From Slackia sp. (GTDB taxonomy: Bacteria; Actinomycetota; Coriobacteriia; Coriobacteriales; Eggerthellaceae): a DNA stretch of 36,083 nt. Shown here piece after piece: positions 595-8,092 of this stretch. The translations under genes were made by a program, and so were the position numbers. A model generated the notes under the pieces. That model had not been told where the DNA came from. It worked only from the letters and a program-made list of their open reading frames with translations, and did not search any database. The first letter of the stretch is position 1. The number at the start of each line of letters is the position of its first letter. The stretch is taken from NCBI GenBank assembly GCA_030525985.1, contig JAUNDR010000014.1:1163-37245 (forward strand), read 5' to 3'.

Positions 595-1053
595 TCACTT
601 CGTCTTGAACGGGTCCTCGCACTCCTTGACGCTGAGCTTGTCCAGCGCGATGTCCGCGGCCTCCTGCTCCCTGATGTACTTGGCGATCGTAGCCTCGTTG
701 AGGCCGACCGTCGACACGTAGCAGCCTTCGGACCAGAACTTCCTGTTGCTGAACTTGTACTTTAGATTCGCATGCTTGTCGAAGATCATCAGGGAGCTCT
801 TCCCCTTCAGATACCCCATAAAGCTCGCGACGGCTATCTTCGGAGGTATCGCAACCAGCATGTGGACATGGTCCGACATGAGGTGCCCCTCGATCAGCTC
901 GACGCCCTTGTACTCGCAGAGCCTCCTGAGAATCTCCCCTATGTCCTTCCTGATTTGTCCGTATATCGCTTTCCGCCTATACTTCGGCGTGAACACGATG
1001 TGGTATTTGCACATCCACTTCGTGTGCGAGAGGCTGTAGGCTTTCTGGGCCAT
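595..1053 (-). CDS. tnpA: IS200/IS605-family transposase TnpA (Y1 HUH)
   Basis: The 152-residue protein has the standard length for IS200 TnpA. It carries HIVFTPKYRRK near the N-terminus, the HUH metal-binding motif as DHVHMLV (His62, His64), and the catalytic tyrosine in IAKYIREQE (Tyr125). These enzymes work as dimers on single-stranded DNA, using the tyrosine to cut and paste the transposon strand without copying. Start choice is MAQKAYSL at 1053: the sequence lines up with IS200 proteins from here, and a GGAAAGGTGG stretch precedes it. An in-frame ATG at 1104 lies inside the leader hairpin and is unlikely to be used. All key residues are present, so it is probably active. The adjacent leader hairpin should keep translation low. 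Confidence 0.93.
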   Translation of the reverse strand: MAQKAYSLSHTKWMCKYHIVFTPKYRRKAIYGQIRKDIGEILRRLCEYKGVELIEGHLMSDHVHMLVAIPPKIAVASFMGYLKGKSSLMIFDKHANLKYKFSNRKFWSEGCYVSTVGLNEATIAKYIREQEAADIALDKLSVKECEDPFKTK

Positions 1054-1061
1054 AGCCGACC

Positions 1062-1123
1062 ACCACCTTTCCGCTCGGATTTTTGACGGCCTGAACATCG
1101 TCAATATCCGACGGAAAGGTGGT
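1062..1123 (-). promoter_or_regulatory. tnpA leader hairpin sequestering the ribosome-binding site
   Basis: CGGAAAGGTGGT at 1112-1123 on the plus strand is the exact reverse complement of ACCACCTTTCCG at 1062-1073, giving a 12-bp perfect stem around a 38-nt loop. On the mRNA the 3' arm includes the GGAAAGG that serves as Shine-Dalgarno for tnpA, ending 8 nt before the ATG. The site is therefore occluded when the stem forms. Repression of transposase translation by an RBS-masking stem-loop is established for enterobacterial IS200; its action here is inferred from the geometry. Confidence 0.75.
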
Positions 1124-1310: not shown

Positions 1311-3347
1311 CTAGAGCCCTCCTTCGACCTCATTGCGCAATTCAGCAAGCGTTTCGCCCTTATAGAGGAAGTAAAGCGGACCCGAAACCCCATTAGTGTT
1401 GGTCTTACCGAGCAAAACAGCAGCAAGCCTCGATAGCGTATATACCGTACCGTCGTACAAAACATGCGTGTCGTCGTAGACCGTGGCCACGCGACTCGGG
1501 TTGTGTATATACGAAATCTCCTCGCCCGGACGAAGACCGATCATGCTGAACTTAAAGTTGCTCCTTCTTTTGCTGCACGATTCCTCGTCGAACGACTTCT
1601 CCGATTGATACTTCGACGGGAACGACCAGATTTCGACACATCGCTGAGCAAGCTTCCTGCCTCGCCTACGAATCTGCGAGGGACCCCAATCATCATACGA
1701 AAGCAAATCGCGCGTATAGAAAAAGCTCGACTCCCCATACCAGTCGCCCTTCTCAGAAAAAAGGCCGTTGGACATTTCAGCGTTATTGCTGGTAAGAGCA
1801 AGGTTTCCCAATTTATTCAAATAATCGTCATGATGAATGGCATCATCGCCCAAAACGTTCTGCCAGCCCTCGCTTAGGGTTTTCGGCATCACATGCTCAA
1901 TCGTGGTATTGATATCGTCATATCTCGGAAGGCCTTTGGCCGCAGGCGAGTTCTGTTCAAGCACGTAGAGAAGATATTTGGTTCCGCGGGCCCTCAGAAC
2001 CTCGAAAATCTGCCTATTGACAAGCGCGTCGAAGAACATTCTGTCAGACGGGAAGGCGAACTTTTCGCTGCCTGAGGAAAGAGCTACCCAAAAAGCGTCA
2101 ACAAGGTTGTCGTAATCGTCTTCAGGCAGCTTTCTGAGGATATTGCCCGCGAACTGCGAGTTAATACCCGTTGTGCCAGAAACCTTTGCCCCGAAGACAA
2201 GGGAAAGACACGCATTGAGCATTTCCATCATCTGATCCGTCGTAATAAGACCGCGATGATACTTATCCATGACGTACAGCAAGACGGGGCGCGATGCGAC
2301 AGCCTGATTAAGAGAAACAATCGAATAAATGACACGACCCGCATCATCCAGGGCATTCATATCGATTCCGTCGTCGAATACAAGGTCCCTGTAAACCTCG
2401 GAATAACCCAACATGTCCTTAAGGATCAACTCCGTGACCTCGGAAGAGCTCTCGTATCGTTCCTTCTTGCCGACGAGAGAAGCGTAATGGTCTTTAAACG
2501 CTTGGTACAGATTGTTCTCGTTAATGTGAGCCCTTCGGCCTCGGAGCATGAGAGCGTCCGATTTCCTGACAAAGATCAGGTAATCGATAAAAAACCTAAC
2601 CATATTGTCAGCACGAACGTTTTCTTCGATTCCAAACCAATAGTCATCATAGAGACGAACCTGGGTCTCATAATCGAGACTCATAAGAAGGAAGTTTCGA
2701 AGAAGATCGACATCGGTAAGATCAAGGCCTGTAGAGTTCAGACTTTCAAATATCTCCTGAGGATTCTCCCCTTCAACATCCAGGTCGACGATAACGATGC
2801 GATCGAGAGCGGATCGCACATCAGCCACCTGGCACTCGTCCAAGCCTGAAATCGCCTCGTAGAAATAATTATAGTTCTGATAAATTCGAGACGACGCCTC
2901 CGAAGGCGACAACTTGCTTGCCGGAGTGTATTCCTTATTGGAGAGAAGCTTATTGTATACCTCGTCGTCCCTTCTATTGAGATGCAATTTCACCTTATGA
3001 TTAGGCGAAACACCGTACCCATTATTATGAAGGAAGTTGGAATCTATATCATTTTTAAAAACTTCGTTGTCAACATAATCATGCATAGCTTTCATGAGTA
3101 ATGTCACGGTAGTGATTCTCTGCTGACCATCGATAATGGTCTTCTCGTGGCCGTTGAACGTCTTAGAGCAGACAGTGCCGAGAAAGTGAGTCTTTGAAGA
3201 CGGGCTTTGGGAAATGTACCAGATGTCATTCCATAACTGCTTGCAGTTCTCCTCTTTCCAGTCGTAATTTCGCTGATACACGGGAATCATAAAGCTCATA
3301 TTCGTTGCGGTCAGATACTGCGTTATGTTGTTCTTATTAACCTGCAT
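1311..3347 (-). CDS. GmrSD-type restriction protein: DUF262 + DUF1524 HNH + RAMA-like C-terminal domain
   Basis: A 678-residue single-chain GmrSD-family protein. Residues 1-230 are the DUF262 (GmrS) part, with IPVYQRNYDW (21-30), the DGQQR nucleotide-handling motif (73-77) and a later SLNSTGLDLTDVDLLRN stretch. Residues 483-575 are the DUF1524 (GmrD) HNH-type nuclease, with IEHVMP, then KLGNLALTSNN and FSEK. From about residue 598 an extra domain follows (LRPGEEISYI, HVLYDGTVYTLSRLA, NGVSGPLYFLYKGETL), resembling the RAMA/DUF4357 module linked to restriction enzymes and adenine methylases. GmrSD proteins are NTP-dependent type IV nucleases that cut modified, often phage, DNA. The start is supported by AAGGGG 7 nt upstream. 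The gene is AT-richer than the genome core, which suggests horizontal transfer. Family call is strong; the RAMA assignment is by eye. Confidence 0.9.
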   Translation of the reverse strand: MQVNKNNITQYLTATNMSFMIPVYQRNYDWKEENCKQLWNDIWYISQSPSSKTHFLGTVCSKTFNGHEKTIIDGQQRITTVTLLMKAMHDYVDNEVFKNDIDSNFLHNNGYGVSPNHKVKLHLNRRDDEVYNKLLSNKEYTPASKLSPSEASSRIYQNYNYFYEAISGLDECQVADVRSALDRIVIVDLDVEGENPQEIFESLNSTGLDLTDVDLLRNFLLMSLDYETQVRLYDDYWFGIEENVRADNMVRFFIDYLIFVRKSDALMLRGRRAHINENNLYQAFKDHYASLVGKKERYESSSEVTELILKDMLGYSEVYRDLVFDDGIDMNALDDAGRVIYSIVSLNQAVASRPVLLYVMDKYHRGLITTDQMMEMLNACLSLVFGAKVSGTTGINSQFAGNILRKLPEDDYDNLVDAFWVALSSGSEKFAFPSDRMFFDALVNRQIFEVLRARGTKYLLYVLEQNSPAAKGLPRYDDINTTIEHVMPKTLSEGWQNVLGDDAIHHDDYLNKLGNLALTSNNAEMSNGLFSEKGDWYGESSFFYTRDLLSYDDWGPSQIRRRGRKLAQRCVEIWSFPSKYQSEKSFDEESCSKRRSNFKFSMIGLRPGEEISYIHNPSRVATVYDDTHVLYDGTVYTLSRLAAVLLGKTNTNGVSGPLYFLYKGETLAELRNEVEGGL

Positions 3348-3813: not shown

Positions 3814-4770
3814 TTAGGCTCTCTGCAGCACCAAATACTTATTCATCGCCCCCGTGCGGCCGTCGGCTTCGAAAGCATCGATCAGGCGCGCTCGCGACGA
3901 CACGGCGTCAATCAGGCGCCCCACTTCCTCATCAGAGAAATGATGGCAATAGCGCCACGCTCTTTCGACGTTTTTCCAGCCCAGCAGATAATCGCCCTCG
4001 TCGAACGCATCCGCCGCAAGACCGAGCGCGCTGCCTGCCTGCGCGTGCGTCGCCTGCGCCTTCGCCGCCAACGCGGGATTGTTCATGAACTGCCAAAGCG
4101 ACACGGCCACGCATCCCCCGGGACGCACCGCGTCGATCAAACCCTCCAGCACGCGCACGCGCAGCCGCTCGTCAGGCACATGATGCAGAAACCCGAACGA
4201 CACGGCCATATCCGTCTGTGGCGCATGATGCAGTTCGCACAACGACGCACCCGCAATCAAGCCGCCCACGATATCGGACGATTCATACGTCACGAGAATA
4301 CCCAGCTCGCTTGCCGAAGCGGCCAACTCGTCGCAACCGTCCACCGCATACGCGCGCACATCCGCGCACGGCAACGCCTCTTCCAGATAGCGTTCGAAAC
4401 GCAGATTGCCGCATGCCAAGTCGAATACGGAAACCGCGGGGCGCATTGCGCCTTCGGTCTCGCAGGGTGCGGCTTCGCCCGCGTTCCCGTCGGCCGTTAT
4501 TTCGACATGCCGGACTTCTCTCTCGGCGCTATCAGCATCGAACATTCCATCGCAAAGAAGCGGTCCCCTTGAAACAACGCCTTCCCCGCGAAGTCGCCCG
4601 GCACCAACACACAAAGAGCCATCGGCAACGCCCAGCGCCTCCGCCATCATAGCGACGCAACGCCGCCATCCATGCCACGGCGCCGTGCGCGTCGCGGAAA
4701 ACGACGCGGCTTGCGCGCGATAGAAATCGGACGTCACGTTGCAGAGTATTTCAGCGGTCTTCATATCCAT
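3814..4770 (-). CDS. Trm9-like SAM-dependent methyltransferase (candidate tRNA wobble-uridine methylase)
   Basis: A 318-residue class I methyltransferase. The N-terminus carries NVTSDFYRAQ...SFSATRTAPWHGW (about 11-35), which closely resembles the 'YNEIA.HFS.TR..PWP' signature of eukaryotic Trm9. SAM-binding motif I is VFDLACGNLRF (115-125). Later motifs include MAVSFGFLHHVPDE, RPGGCVAVSLW and a C-terminal MNKYLVLQ. About 60 poorly conserved residues (50-110) separate the Trm9-like segment from motif I. Trm9 methylates cm5U34 to mcm5U34 in tRNA. The gene is divergent from elp3 with a 36-bp gap, and Elp3 makes the cm5U substrate, so a linked role is likely but not shown. The start at 4770 (MDMKTAE) or 4764 is uncertain because no strong Shine-Dalgarno is visible. 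A general small-molecule methyltransferase remains possible. Confidence 0.82.
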   Translation of the reverse strand: MDMKTAEILCNVTSDFYRAQAASFSATRTAPWHGWRRCVAMMAEALGVADGSLCVGAGRLRGEGVVSRGPLLCDGMFDADSAEREVRHVEITADGNAGEAAPCETEGAMRPAVSVFDLACGNLRFERYLEEALPCADVRAYAVDGCDELAASASELGILVTYESSDIVGGLIAGASLCELHHAPQTDMAVSFGFLHHVPDERLRVRVLEGLIDAVRPGGCVAVSLWQFMNNPALAAKAQATHAQAGSALGLAADAFDEGDYLLGWKNVERAWRYCHHFSDEEVGRLIDAVSSRARLIDAFEADGRTGAMNKYLVLQRA

Positions 4771-4806
4771 ACGAATCGCCTGCGATTCTACGATAGACTT
4801 ACCCGC
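4771..4806. promoter_or_regulatory. Compact divergent promoter region, methyltransferase/elp3
   Basis: Only 36 bp separate the two start codons. A plus-strand -10-like TACGAT (4789-4794) overlaps a minus-strand TAGAAT (4785-4790). Each would place transcription start within about 4-8 nt of the start codon, and neither gene has a clear Shine-Dalgarno. This suggests leaderless or near-leaderless mRNAs and mutually exclusive polymerase binding. The -35 elements are weak and would lie inside the opposite gene. Confidence 0.35.
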
Positions 4807-6621
4807 ATGGATACTATTTTGCTTGAAGTCATCGAAGAGATACGCTGCGGCACCGACGTGGACCACAAAGTGCTCGCACGCATCCTGCACGAACACAACC
4901 AGGGGCTTTCGCGCAACGAAGACCACTTCGCGAAAAAGCAGCTTCTGCCCTACTATTTCGCGCTCAAAGAGCGCTCGCCCGAAACGGTGGCGACATGGAA
5001 CCTCGACGACGCGACCGAGCGCGCGCTCATTGCGGCACTGCAGATGAAGCCGCGCCGCACTGCATCGGGCGTAGCCACGATCACCGTGATCACCAAGCCT
5101 TGGAGCTGCGGCAGCGATTGCCTCTACTGTCCCAACGACGTGCGCATGCCGAAAAGCTATCTGCACGACGAGCCCGCCTGCCAACGGGCCGAGCGCAACT
5201 GCTTCGACCCGTATCTGCAGGTGGCATCGCGCTTGCGTGCGCTCCACCAGATGGGACACCCCATCGACAAGATCGAACTGATCGTGCTGGGCGGCACCTG
5301 GACCGACTACCCCGTCGCCTACCAGACCTGGTTCATCGCCGAGCTGTTCCGCGCGCTCAACGACGGCGTAGATGCCGCCGAACAGGTGGAGGCGCGCCGC
5401 GCCTTCTACGCGGACGCAGGCATCGCCAGCGACGGCCGCTCCCTTGCCACGTTCGCCCGCGATGCCCAGCAGGCAGTCAACCGGGGCGCTTCCTTCAATG
5501 CCGTAGTGCGCAATCTGTATGCCGAGCACGCAGGCTGGCAACGCGCCGCCGCCATGCAAAGGGCAACCATCGAAGAGCTGGAAGCCTTGCAGCGCGAAAA
5601 CGAGCAGGCGAACAGCCGCGTGGTGGGCTTGGTGGTGGAAACGCGCCCCGACGCGATCGACGCGCATACCTGCACCATGCTGCGCCGGTTCGGCTGCACC
5701 AAGGTGCAGATCGGCGTGCAAAGTCTCAATCCCGCCGTGCTGGCCGCCAACAACCGGCGCATCAGCCCCGAGCGCATCGCCGAAGCCTTCGCTTTGCTGC
5801 GCCTGTTCGGCTTCAAAATCCATGCCCATTTCATGGCGAACCTCTACGGCGCCACGCCCGACGCCGACAAACAAGATTACGAAACCTTCGTGACCGACGC
5901 GCGCTATCTGCCCGACGAGGTGAAGATCTATCCTTGCGCGCTCGTGAACGGCACGGGGCTCGTGCAGCACTTCGAAGACGGCAGCTGGCGCCCTTATACC
6001 GAAGACGAGCTGATCGACGCGCTTTCGCACGACACGCTGATCACGCCGCCCTATATGCGCATCTCGCGCATGATCAGGGATATTTCGGCAAGCGACATCA
6101 TGGCGGGCAACAAGAAGACCAATCTGCGCCAGATGGTGGAGCGCCATATCGAGCAAACCGAACGCGGCGGCCAGGTATCGGATATCCGCTACCGCGAGAT
6201 CAACAATCGCGCCACCGAGGTGGCCGATCTGTCGATCGACGATGTGGAATACGAGACATCCGTTTCGACCGAGCATTTCCTGCAGTGGGTCACGCCCGAC
6301 AATCGCATCGCAGGCTTCTTGCGCCTATCGCTGCCGAACCCCGATGCGATCGACGCGCGCGCCGACCTGCCGATTGCCGAAGGGGAAGCCACGATCCGCG
6401 AAGTGCACGTCTACGGCGCCGCCGCCAAACTGCACGCCACGAGCAAAGGCGCGCAGCATTTGGGGCTGGGCCGCACGCTCGTGGAAACCGCCTGCTCCAT
6501 GGCACACGACGCCGGATACCGCGCCGTCAACGTGATCAGCTCCGTCGGCACGCGCGAATACTACCGCAAGCTGGGATTCGCCGATGCAGGGCTTTATCAA
6601 AAGCGCACGATCGACGGCTAA
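4807..6621 (+). CDS. elp3: Elp3: radical SAM/GNAT tRNA uridine-34 modification enzyme
   Basis: A 604-residue Elp3 homologue with both catalytic halves. The radical SAM domain has KPRRTASG (81-88) and the [4Fe-4S] ligands in CGSDCLYCPND (Cys101, Cys105, Cys108). GGTWTDYP follows at about 162, ETRPDAI at about 278, then VQIGVQSLN. The C-terminal GNAT domain has REVHVYG, the acetyl-CoA loop HLGLGRTLVE and VISSVGTREYYRKLGF. Elp3 uses SAM and acetyl-CoA to add a carboxymethyl group to C5 of tRNA U34 (cm5U). About 115 residues lie between GGTW and ETRPD, longer than I recall for compact members, including a stretch rich in Ala, Glu and Arg. The start is MDTILLEV, where family similarity begins. Upstream in-frame codons overlap the divergent gene. 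The Trm9-like neighbour supports a tRNA role. Confidence 0.95.
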   Translation: MDTILLEVIEEIRCGTDVDHKVLARILHEHNQGLSRNEDHFAKKQLLPYYFALKERSPETVATWNLDDATERALIAALQMKPRRTASGVATITVITKPWSCGSDCLYCPNDVRMPKSYLHDEPACQRAERNCFDPYLQVASRLRALHQMGHPIDKIELIVLGGTWTDYPVAYQTWFIAELFRALNDGVDAAEQVEARRAFYADAGIASDGRSLATFARDAQQAVNRGASFNAVVRNLYAEHAGWQRAAAMQRATIEELEALQRENEQANSRVVGLVVETRPDAIDAHTCTMLRRFGCTKVQIGVQSLNPAVLAANNRRISPERIAEAFALLRLFGFKIHAHFMANLYGATPDADKQDYETFVTDARYLPDEVKIYPCALVNGTGLVQHFEDGSWRPYTEDELIDALSHDTLITPPYMRISRMIRDISASDIMAGNKKTNLRQMVERHIEQTERGGQVSDIRYREINNRATEVADLSIDDVEYETSVSTEHFLQWVTPDNRIAGFLRLSLPNPDAIDARADLPIAEGEATIREVHVYGAAAKLHATSKGAQHLGLGRTLVETACSMAHDAGYRAVNVISSVGTREYYRKLGFADAGLYQKRTIDG

Positions 6622-6795: not shown

Positions 6796-7335
6796 ATGAA
6801 CATCTGCGTCTTCTGCTCGTCGTCGAGCAACCTGGATGCCGCTTACCTCGATGCGGCCGACGCGCTCGGACGCGCCGTCGCACGCCACGGCCACACGCTC
6901 GTATTCGGCGGCTACGATATGGGCCTCATGGGCGCCGTCGCCCGCGCGACCGTCGCAGAAGGCGGGCGCGTCATCGGCATCACCACAAAGGGCCTGAGCG
7001 CCAAGGGTCGCGCCGTGGTAGCGGGCATCGAGGAAGAATGCACGGCCGACCTTTCCGCGCGCAAAGAGCGCATGGTGGAACTTTCCGACGCCTTCGTCAC
7101 GCTGCCGGGAGGCCTGGGCACGTTCGACGAATTCTTCAGCGTGATTTCGCGTGTGAAAGCGGGCGAACTCGATGCGAAAAGCGCATTGCTTGATGTGGAC
7201 GGCTTCTTCAAGCCGCTGGCCGCCCTGCTCGACGACGCTTGCGCGCGCGGCTTGAACTCCACCGATTGGCGTGCGACCTGCGAAATCTTCGATGACGCCG
7301 AAGCGCTTGTCTCGTGGATCGAGAACGCGCGATGA
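6796..7335 (+). CDS. LOG-family nucleoside 5'-monophosphate phosphoribohydrolase (TIGR00730)
   Basis: A 179-residue Rossmann-like protein of the LOG ('lysine decarboxylase-like') family. MNICVFCSSSS begins the first strand. VFGGYDMGLMGAVA (36-49) is the substrate loop, the conserved Arg-Lys pair is at 89-90, and the signature is PGGLGTFDE (104-112). LOG enzymes release the free base from cytokinin or AMP nucleotides; in bacteria the physiological substrate is often unclear. The usual 'GT.EE' is GTFDE here, a conservative change. The start has AAAGGAA 8 nt upstream. It lies 174 nt after elp3 on the same strand, and its stop overlaps the start of a 55-codon gene by ATGA. Family is certain; substrate is not. 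Confidence 0.92.
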   Translation: MNICVFCSSSSNLDAAYLDAADALGRAVARHGHTLVFGGYDMGLMGAVARATVAEGGRVIGITTKGLSAKGRAVVAGIEEECTADLSARKERMVELSDAFVTLPGGLGTFDEFFSVISRVKAGELDAKSALLDVDGFFKPLAALLDDACARGLNSTDWRATCEIFDDAEALVSWIENAR

Positions 7336-7576: not shown

Positions 7577-7939
7577 CTAGTGATGACACGCGTGCTCGGC
7601 GCCCATGACGGGAAGCTCTCCCGCCGCGGCGCGCTTGGCGACATCGCCCACGCCCGGGGTCTCGGCGTCGTAGAACACGGTGATGCCCGCCTGGGCGAAA
7701 CCCTGCATAGGACGCATGCCCATGCCCGCCGCCACGATGGCATCGGCTCCGGCGTCGGAAAGAATGCTTACCGGACGCAGGCAGCCGCCGCTTTCGTGCG
7801 GAGGATTGGCCACGATGGAAACCTCTTTGATGTCGCCATCCTCGATATCGACCATCGTGAAACAATCGCTATGGCCGAAATGGCCCGAGCGAACCGCATC
7901 CAAACCGCCCTCGCCCATCGAAGGAATCGCCAGCTTCAT
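7577..7939 (-). CDS. NifX/NifB-C-terminal-like Fe-Mo cofactor-binding domain protein
   Basis: A 120-residue protein of the dinitrogenase iron-molybdenum cofactor family. It begins MKLAIPSMGEGGLDA, followed by SGHFGHSDCFTMVDI and then GADAIVAAGMGMRPMQGF, the family's conserved core. The C-terminus ends EHACHH, a likely metal-binding patch. Such small proteins bind or carry iron-sulfur or Fe-Mo type clusters. In many anaerobes they occur without nitrogenase, and no nif gene is nearby. The start MKLAIP was chosen because it is the conserved strand 1; an ATG 15 codons upstream is also possible and has no better ribosome-binding site. It stands alone between a convergent hairpin and the Orf3-like gene 153 nt upstream. 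Its partner and exact cluster are unknown. Confidence 0.85.
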   Translation of the reverse strand: MKLAIPSMGEGGLDAVRSGHFGHSDCFTMVDIEDGDIKEVSIVANPPHESGGCLRPVSILSDAGADAIVAAGMGMRPMQGFAQAGITVFYDAETPGVGDVAKRAAAGELPVMGAEHACHH

Positions 7940-8092
7940 GCTTGCCACCACGCTTTCTCTCGTTGCGGATAAGACCCTTTCCATGGTATCGCTTTTTGAG
8001 AGCGCTGCGACATCATTTTCACCAACGGTCGCAGGCGGAAAGCGAACCCCCGAAAGACATCGCCATAGCGCGCTGCTCGCCCCGGCAACGCA

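What the first reader, a model, noticed from the sequence alone, without database searches (positions are those of the whole stretch)
3814..6621. Divergent Elp3 and Trm9-like genes: a possible bacterial cm5U-to-mcm5U wobble pathway
The methyltransferase carries an N-terminal SFSATRTAPW segment very like the Trm9 signature, and it faces a complete Elp3 across 36 bp. In eukaryotes Elp3 makes cm5U34 and Trm9 methylates it to mcm5U34. A two-gene bacterial version without other Elongator subunits would be new to my knowledge. Seen: both proteins and their arrangement. Known: functions of the eukaryotic families. Inferred: that the bacterial pair forms one pathway.
Basis: partly seen in the sequence, partly recalled or inferred. 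Interest (0 to 1): 0.75.

Follow-up and report, generated by a model that had tools for sequence, protein, structure and literature searches.

The report
Bacterial Elp3 with Trm9-like methyltransferase partner
A gut bacterium carries two facing genes that look like a stripped-down version of the tRNA-editing pathway yeast and humans use to tune how the genetic code is read; the two genes occur together or not at all across the bacterial groups tested, which suggests that bacteria also make a tRNA modification not so far assigned to them.

Summary
Window 4807-6621 (+) encodes a full Elp3 (TIGR01211, 407.6 bits, cut-off 350). Across 36 bp, 4770-3814 (-) encodes a 318-aa class I methyltransferase (MT).

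1. Co-occurrence: in 197 Coriobacteriia genomes Elp3 and MT are both present in 95 and both absent in 101; one has Elp3 alone. In 396 Actinomycetota the two sets of 32 genomes are identical, including six outside Coriobacteriia with a different Elp3. Most pairs are divergent neighbours; three are same-strand; two complete genomes have the genes far apart.
2. Family: a 60-sequence MT profile matches yeast Trm9 (5cm2) best in the whole PDB (E 7e-9) and outscores E. coli quinone, small-molecule and CmoA/CmoM methylases.
3. Active site: Trm9 R29, H115, R241 and N271 are invariant in MT; Y243 is Cys.

The genome has the tRNAs mcm5U modifies in yeast, and MnmA, but no MnmG or Trm112. Best reading: Elp3 makes cm5U34 and MT methylates it to mcm5U34 without Trm112. 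A published catalogue lists neither for Bacteria. The reaction is inferred; no nucleoside data exist. Other phyla could not be searched.

The parts
3814..4770 (-). Trm9-like class I SAM methyltransferase, 318 aa (stop codon included in the range)
   Evidence: ORF; profile best match to Trm9 5cm2 in PDB; Trm9s score above all control methylases; residue map
4666..4725 (-). N-terminal FYRAQAASFSATRTAPWHGW segment (residues 16-35); R28 aligns with Trm9 R29
   Evidence: invariant F16 Y17 F24 R28 W32 G34 W35 in 60 sequences; alignment
4393..4428 (-). SAM-binding motif VFDLACGNLRFE (residues 115-126), D-x2-C-G-N shared with Trm9
3943..3993 (-). lid hairpin D260-W265 / R273-Y-C-H276 (residues 260-276); two strands in the AlphaFold2 model, matching Trm9 D163-W168 and R241-H244
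   Evidence: Trm9 lid and R241/Y243 described in PMC5372719
3835..3864 (-). C-terminal DGRTGAMNKY (residues 303-312); N310 aligns with Trm9 N271
4771..4806 (.). 36-bp gap between the two divergent start codons
   Evidence: no consensus sigma-70 promoter found
4807..6621 (+). Elp3 (radical SAM + GNAT), 604 aa
   Evidence: TIGR01211 407.6 bits over the cut-off 350; Pfam domains; PDB Elp3s E 1e-78
5107..5130 (+). radical SAM cysteines C101-x3-C105-x2-C108
   Evidence: CX3CX2C in nearly all Coriobacteriia Elp3s fetched, invariant
6454..6579 (+). GNAT acetyl-CoA site: Q550-H-L-G-L-G ... R583-E-Y-Y-R-K-L-G-F591

Best explanation
The two genes form a two-enzyme wobble-uridine pathway in bacteria. Elp3 (radical SAM + acetyl-CoA) attaches a carboxymethyl group to C5 of U34 (cm5U34). 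The neighbouring Trm9-like enzyme then uses SAM to esterify that carboxylate, giving mcm5U34, on tRNAs of the split codon boxes (Lys-UUU, Glu-UUC, Gln-UUG, Arg-UCU, Gly-UCC); where MnmA adds sulfur the product would be mcm5s2U34. It takes the place of the usual bacterial MnmE/MnmG route, which Coriobacteriia lack, and it works without Trm112. Shown here: the genes, their linkage, joint presence and loss, the relation of the methyltransferase to Trm9 and conservation of its active site, the tRNAs, MnmA, and the absence of MnmG and Trm112. Inferred: the enzyme activities, their order, the product, and Trm112 independence.
For: Joint distribution: 95 genomes with both, 101 with neither, 1 Elp3 only, 0 MT only among 197 Coriobacteriia; identical sets of 32 in 396 Actinomycetota. 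Independent replicate: six genomes of three families outside Coriobacteriia with a different Elp3 (about 600 bits) all carry the MT, divergent to Elp3 in four and at facing contig ends in the other two; neighbours are bacterial genes such as LeuRS, so not archaeal contamination. Rearranged pairs keep the link: ATGA stop/start overlap in L020, and two single-contig genomes have both genes far apart. One genome (G039) has both genes truncated from their facing ends. Family: Trm9 5cm2 is the best PDB match of MT profiles, E 6.9e-9 and 1.8e-20; profile-profile E 9e-25 to Trm9, scores 83-107 to single Trm9s against at most 48 for nine E. coli methylases. Active site: R29, H115, R241, N271 of yeast Trm9 = R28, H196, R273, N310, all invariant (roles from PMC5372719). 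U34 tRNAs and MnmA present.
Against: No nucleoside or enzyme data. Trm9 needs Trm112 in eukaryotes; none was found here. Y243 of Trm9 is Cys in all Coriobacteriia MTs. The tree does not resolve the deep branching. The fold alone does not single out Trm9: METTL6, a tRNA m3C32 enzyme, scores highest with VIA-align. Elp3 here has CX3CX2C cysteines rather than the CX4CX2C of the archaeal enzymes aligned. G096 has Elp3 but no MT found, perhaps an assembly gap.
Confidence: 0.82

Rival explanations
1. The MT acts on the same tRNAs but at another atom or position (for example a base methylation in the anticodon loop like METTL6 m3C32), and only works alongside Elp3.
For: Best VIA-align matches of both MT models are METTL6 (Z 19.7 and 23.2).
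Against: METTL6 did not appear in the profile searches against PDB sequences at the thresholds used, whereas Trm9 was first. The substrate-orienting residues of Trm9 (R29, H115, R241, N271) are the invariant ones. A presence/absence pattern tied to Elp3 fits an enzyme that needs Elp3's product.
Confidence: 0.08
2. The product is not mcm5U but a different C5 side chain: the divergent Elp3 (CX3CX2C, altered zinc region) adds another acyl unit, and the MT esterifies or methylates that.
For: Coriobacteriia Elp3 scores 407 bits against about 600 for other bacterial Elp3s, has a different cysteine spacing, lacks the three linker cysteines of known bacterial and archaeal Elp3s (alignment; PMC6367351), and the MT has Cys for Trm9 Y243.
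Against: Acetyl-CoA site motifs (QHxGxG, EYYRKLGF) are intact. The six other genomes with ordinary Elp3 have the same kind of MT, so the MT substrate is probably the ordinary cm5U.
Confidence: 0.07
3. The MT is a small-molecule or quinone-type methylase that is merely a conserved neighbour of Elp3.
For: Generic class I fold; Pfam finds only sub-threshold generic methyltransferase matches; the tree cannot reject a grouping with UbiE/UbiG (AU p 0.27).
Against: Strict joint presence even where unlinked, Trm9 as best profile match and Trm9 residues. UbiE and UbiG lack them.
Confidence: 0.03

Closest known systems
Trm9-Trm112 (yeast) and the ALKBH8 methyltransferase domain: cm5U34 to mcm5U34
   Same: Best sequence-profile match; F-x2-TR-x3-W N-terminus, DxGCGN, HH, lid D..W / R-Y-x-H, C-terminal N; acts after Elp3
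   Different: No Trm112 found; Y243 replaced by Cys; long basic loop of Trm9 absent, instead a variable low-confidence linker before the SAM motif; bacterial; beside elp3
Archaeal Elp3 + Trm9 (Haloferax, Sulfolobus; PMC2584109, PMC5372719)
   Same: Two-enzyme set without Elp1/2/4/5/6; genes clustered in Sulfolobus solfataricus
   Different: Archaeal Trm9 works with Trm112 (PMC7694415 citing van Tran 2018); Coriobacteriia Elp3 is a divergent type
Dehalococcoides mccartyi Elp3 (DmcElp3)
   Same: Bacterial stand-alone Elp3 acting on tRNA
   Different: Linker zinc cysteines of DmcElp3 are missing here; no Trm9 partner was described for it in the papers read
MnmE/MnmG/MnmC (usual bacterial xm5U34 route)
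   Same: Modifies C5 of U34 in the same split-box tRNAs
   Different: MnmG is absent from 196 of 197 Coriobacteriia; unrelated chemistry
CmoA/CmoB/CmoM (cmo5U34, methyl ester mcmo5U34)
   Same: CmoM also esterifies a carboxylate on U34
   Different: CmoA and CmoM score far below Trm9 and lack the R/H/R/N set

Membership tests
Elp3 (TIGR01211) | Score over the curated cut-off; radical SAM + GNAT domains | tested here: met
   407.6 bits against 350; Radical_SAM, Radical_SAM_C, Acetyltransf_1
Elp3 (TIGR01211) | Radical SAM cysteine triad and acetyl-CoA motif intact | tested here: met
   C101/C105/C108, Q550-H, EYYRKLGF invariant; the spacing CX3CX2C differs from archaeal CX4CX2C
Elp3 (TIGR01211) | Makes cm5U34 on tRNA | not testable with these tools
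   needs mass spectrometry or an assay
Trm9 | Profile match better than to other methyltransferase families | tested here: met
   5cm2 first in PDB, E 6.9e-9 and 1.8e-20; bits 75/46/38 against at most 25 for E. coli methylases
Trm9 | Residues needed for tRNA binding and catalysis: R29, H115, R241, Y243, N271 | tested here: inconclusive
   four of five identical and invariant; Y243 is Cys in Coriobacteriia, and Y, F, C or V in the six other genomes
Trm9 | Class I fold with two-stranded lid | tested here: met
   AlphaFold2 pLDDT 79.9 and 91.4 with strands at the lid; Foldseek 5cm2 rank 5 and rank 2; the fold is shared by many other methyltransferases
Trm9 | Partner Trm112 | tested here: not met
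   no PF03966 hit in the window genome (96% complete); class hits are fragments inside longer ORFs, mostly genomes unrelated to MT presence
Trm9 | Groups with Trm9 in a tree | tested here: inconclusive
   the tree with Coriobacteriia MT + other bacterial MT + Trm9 as one clade has the best likelihood found (+3.45), but AU does not reject rivals
Trm9 | Converts cm5U34 to mcm5U34 | not testable with these tools
   needs an assay
Quinone or small-molecule methylases (UbiE, UbiG, Tam, BioC) | Better match to these than to Trm9 | tested here: not met
   all score lower

The most novel reading that the evidence does not exclude
Bacteria with this pair make an Elp3-dependent methyl-ester wobble modification that differs from eukaryotic mcm5U, because the divergent Elp3 (CX3CX2C, no linker zinc cysteines) adds a different side chain and the Trm112-free, Cys-containing methyltransferase caps it: a new U34 nucleoside.
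Probability: 0.1. Interest if true: 0.88.

Novelty: new variant of a known kind. Interest (0 to 1): 0.72.

Why it matters
A 2020 review of modified nucleosides lists cmnm5U, mnm5U and nm5U for Bacteria but not cm5U or mcm5U (PMC7694415), and a 2017 review states that no bacterial relatives of the Trm112-dependent methyltransferases could be detected (PMC5372719). The pair predicts mcm5U in common human gut bacteria (Slackia, Collinsella, Adlercreutzia, Atopobium/Olsenella relatives), a Trm112-free Trm9 that would be a simple system for mechanism and structure, and a replacement for MnmE/MnmG in a class that lacks it. It also gives bacterial Elp3, so far studied without a downstream step, a clear next enzyme. 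All of this is testable with one LC-MS/MS run on a cultured strain.

Tried and rejected
Anticorrelation of Elp3 with MnmG inside the class: impossible, since MnmG is missing from 196 of 197 genomes, with or without Elp3. Maximum-likelihood tree with E. coli methylases: long branches, no decision. Single-sequence PDB search: only weak hits, Trm9 fifth of six at E 0.56; the 12-sequence profile put Trm9 second and the 60-sequence profile first. VIA-align does not list 5cm2 among the first 50 for the window MT and lists it at Z 21.5, tied with many, for the other bacterial MT. Phage/virus contigs: 72 pattern hits, no relatives. Literature searches found no bacterial Trm9 or mcm5U report, but only open-licence papers are held.

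Full report
What is there. The window lies in a Slackia genome (closest loci S. faecicanis and S. piriformis; 96% complete, 100 contigs). On the + strand 4807-6621 encodes a 604-aa Elp3 with radical SAM, radical SAM C-terminal and GNAT domains, over the curated TIGR01211 cut-off. On the - strand 4770-3814 encodes a 318-aa protein that Pfam recognises only below threshold as a class I methyltransferase. The start codons face each other across 36 bp. The coordinates and arrangement in the finding are right.

Do the two genes belong together? The same 197 Coriobacteriia genomes were searched with TIGR01211 and with a profile of 12 relatives of the methyltransferase (A1). 95 genomes have both, 101 have neither, one (G096) has Elp3 only, none has the methyltransferase only (Fisher p about 1e-56, which ignores phylogeny). 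Joint presence and absence switches within genus g11 (G134 both, G112 neither), within genus g28 (four genomes both, G056 neither) and within families f4 and f10, so there are several independent joint gains or losses. G096 is probably an assembly gap: its Elp3 lies 1.1 kb from the contig start, and in its sister genome G194 the methyltransferase is 4.4 kb upstream of Elp3; but nothing was found in the rest of G096.

Gene order. In the loci fetched 54 entries (one a duplicate) are divergent, 40 of them within 300 bp. In three genomes the genes are on one strand with the methyltransferase directly downstream of Elp3; in L020 they share an ATGA stop/start overlap. In Collinsella an HTH regulator and a DUF4097 protein sit between them. 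In two single-contig genomes, G163 and G136, they are about 80 and 240 kb apart, so joint presence is not just linkage. In G039 only the last 53 residues of the methyltransferase and Elp3 from about residue 195 on remain, as if one deletion across the shared junction had removed both. Distances of the two proteins correlate (r 0.67, Mantel p 0.0005).

Independent replicate. Among 396 Actinomycetota, Elp3 over E 1e-40 was found in 32 genomes: 26 Coriobacteriia and six others (families f44, f53, f82) whose Elp3 is of the ordinary kind, about 600 bits. A profile of 60 Coriobacteriia methyltransferases (A2) finds a relative in exactly those 32 and in none of the other 364. In four of the six it is divergent to Elp3; in G401 and G430 both genes lie with their 5' ends at contig ends, compatible with the same order. 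A bacterial leucyl-tRNA synthetase next to the methyltransferase in G430 and an actinobacterial-type DUF2342/F420 protein next to Elp3 in G264 argue against archaeal contamination. Within the class of G264 only those four of 36 genomes have it.

What family is the methyltransferase? Against all PDB sequences the A2 profile matches Yarrowia Trm9 (5cm2) best, E 6.9e-9, next 3.7e-6. The profile of the six other bacterial proteins (A3) also matches 5cm2 best, E 1.8e-20, and only there over nearly its whole length. In a panel, A2 gives 74.6, 46.4 and 38.0 bits to a haloarchaeal Trm9-like protein, Yarrowia Trm9 and yeast Trm9, against 24.7 for UbiG, 21.0 for CmoA and under 12 for BioC, Tam, CmoM, UbiE, CmoB and YafS; profile-profile scores agree. 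Yeast Trm9 mutants R29A, H115A, R241A, Y243A and N271A lose tRNA affinity and activity (PMC5372719). In the alignment these are R28, H196, R273, C275 and N310 of the window protein: R28, H196, R273 and N310 are invariant in 60 sequences, and Y243 is Cys in Coriobacteriia but Tyr, Phe, Cys or Val in the six others. D260-W265 and R273-H276 form a hairpin in the AlphaFold2 model, like the Trm9 lid strands. The E. coli methylases lack this set. Structure searches agree but do not discriminate: 5cm2 is rank 5 and rank 2 in Foldseek, METTL6 leads in VIA-align. A tree with E. coli outgroups is unresolved; holding both bacterial groups with Trm9 together gives the best likelihood, and a quinone-methylase grouping is 12 units worse than the free tree, but AU rejects neither.

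Context. MnmG is absent from 196 of 197 Coriobacteriia, so the usual bacterial C5 modification is missing. The window genome has MnmA and tRNA-Lys(UUU), Glu(UUC), Gln(UUG), Arg(UCU) and Gly(UCC), the set that carries mcm5U or mcm5s2U in yeast (PMC5372719). No Trm112 was found in the genome. The Elp3 has CX3CX2C radical SAM cysteines where the archaeal enzymes aligned have CX4CX2C, and lacks the linker cysteines said to be conserved in bacterial and archaeal Elp3 (PMC6367351, alignment), so it is a distinct Elp3 subgroup.

Mechanism. Shown: the genes, their joint inheritance, the Trm9 relation and the active-site conservation. Inferred: Elp3 makes cm5U34; the methyltransferase esterifies it to mcm5U34, without Trm112; MnmA adds sulfur in Lys, Glu and Gln tRNAs.

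Known or new. Elp3 alone in bacteria and archaea is known, and archaea have Elp3 + Trm9 (PMC2584109, PMC7694415). No bacterial Trm9 relative or mcm5U was found in the papers available. Verdict: a bacterial, apparently Trm112-free variant of a known pathway; strong comparative evidence, no biochemistry, phyla beyond Actinomycetota untested.

Noticed in passing
window 1311-3347 (-): GmrSD-type modification-dependent restriction protein (PF03235 + PF07510) next to the pair.
   Followed up: no
window 595-1104 (-): 169-aa ORF that looks like an IS200-type transposase (by eye).
   Followed up: no
window 6796-7335 (+) and 7577-7984 (-): TIGR00730 (LOG-like) protein downstream of Elp3, and a small MrpORP/NifB C-terminal-like domain protein.
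   Followed up: no
197 Coriobacteriia genomes: The class lacks MnmG almost completely; a single full-length MnmG in G071 (C8:4785-6713) stands out and may be contamination or a transfer.
   Followed up: no
L019 1033-2800 (G039): Both genes are truncated from their facing ends, as if one deletion removed the start of each; a natural joint knockout or an assembly fault.
   Followed up: partly
L022 1274-2095 (G058:C4): Second full-length copy of the methyltransferase without an adjacent Elp3, in a genome that also has the normal pair.
   Followed up: no
L068 (G096:C62): Only Coriobacteriia genome with Elp3 and no detectable methyltransferase; the contig starts 1.1 kb upstream of Elp3.
   Followed up: partly
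L061 2235-4102: In Collinsella an HTH regulator and a DUF4097 protein are inserted between the two genes.
   Followed up: no
L099 7882-9204 (G228): IscB RNA-guided nuclease gene (NF040563, 357 bits) just downstream of Elp3.
   Followed up: no
window 4498-4602 (methyltransferase residues 57-91): The linker between the N-terminal helices and the SAM motif varies in length and sequence between close relatives (pLDDT under 50 for residues 51-106).
   Followed up: no
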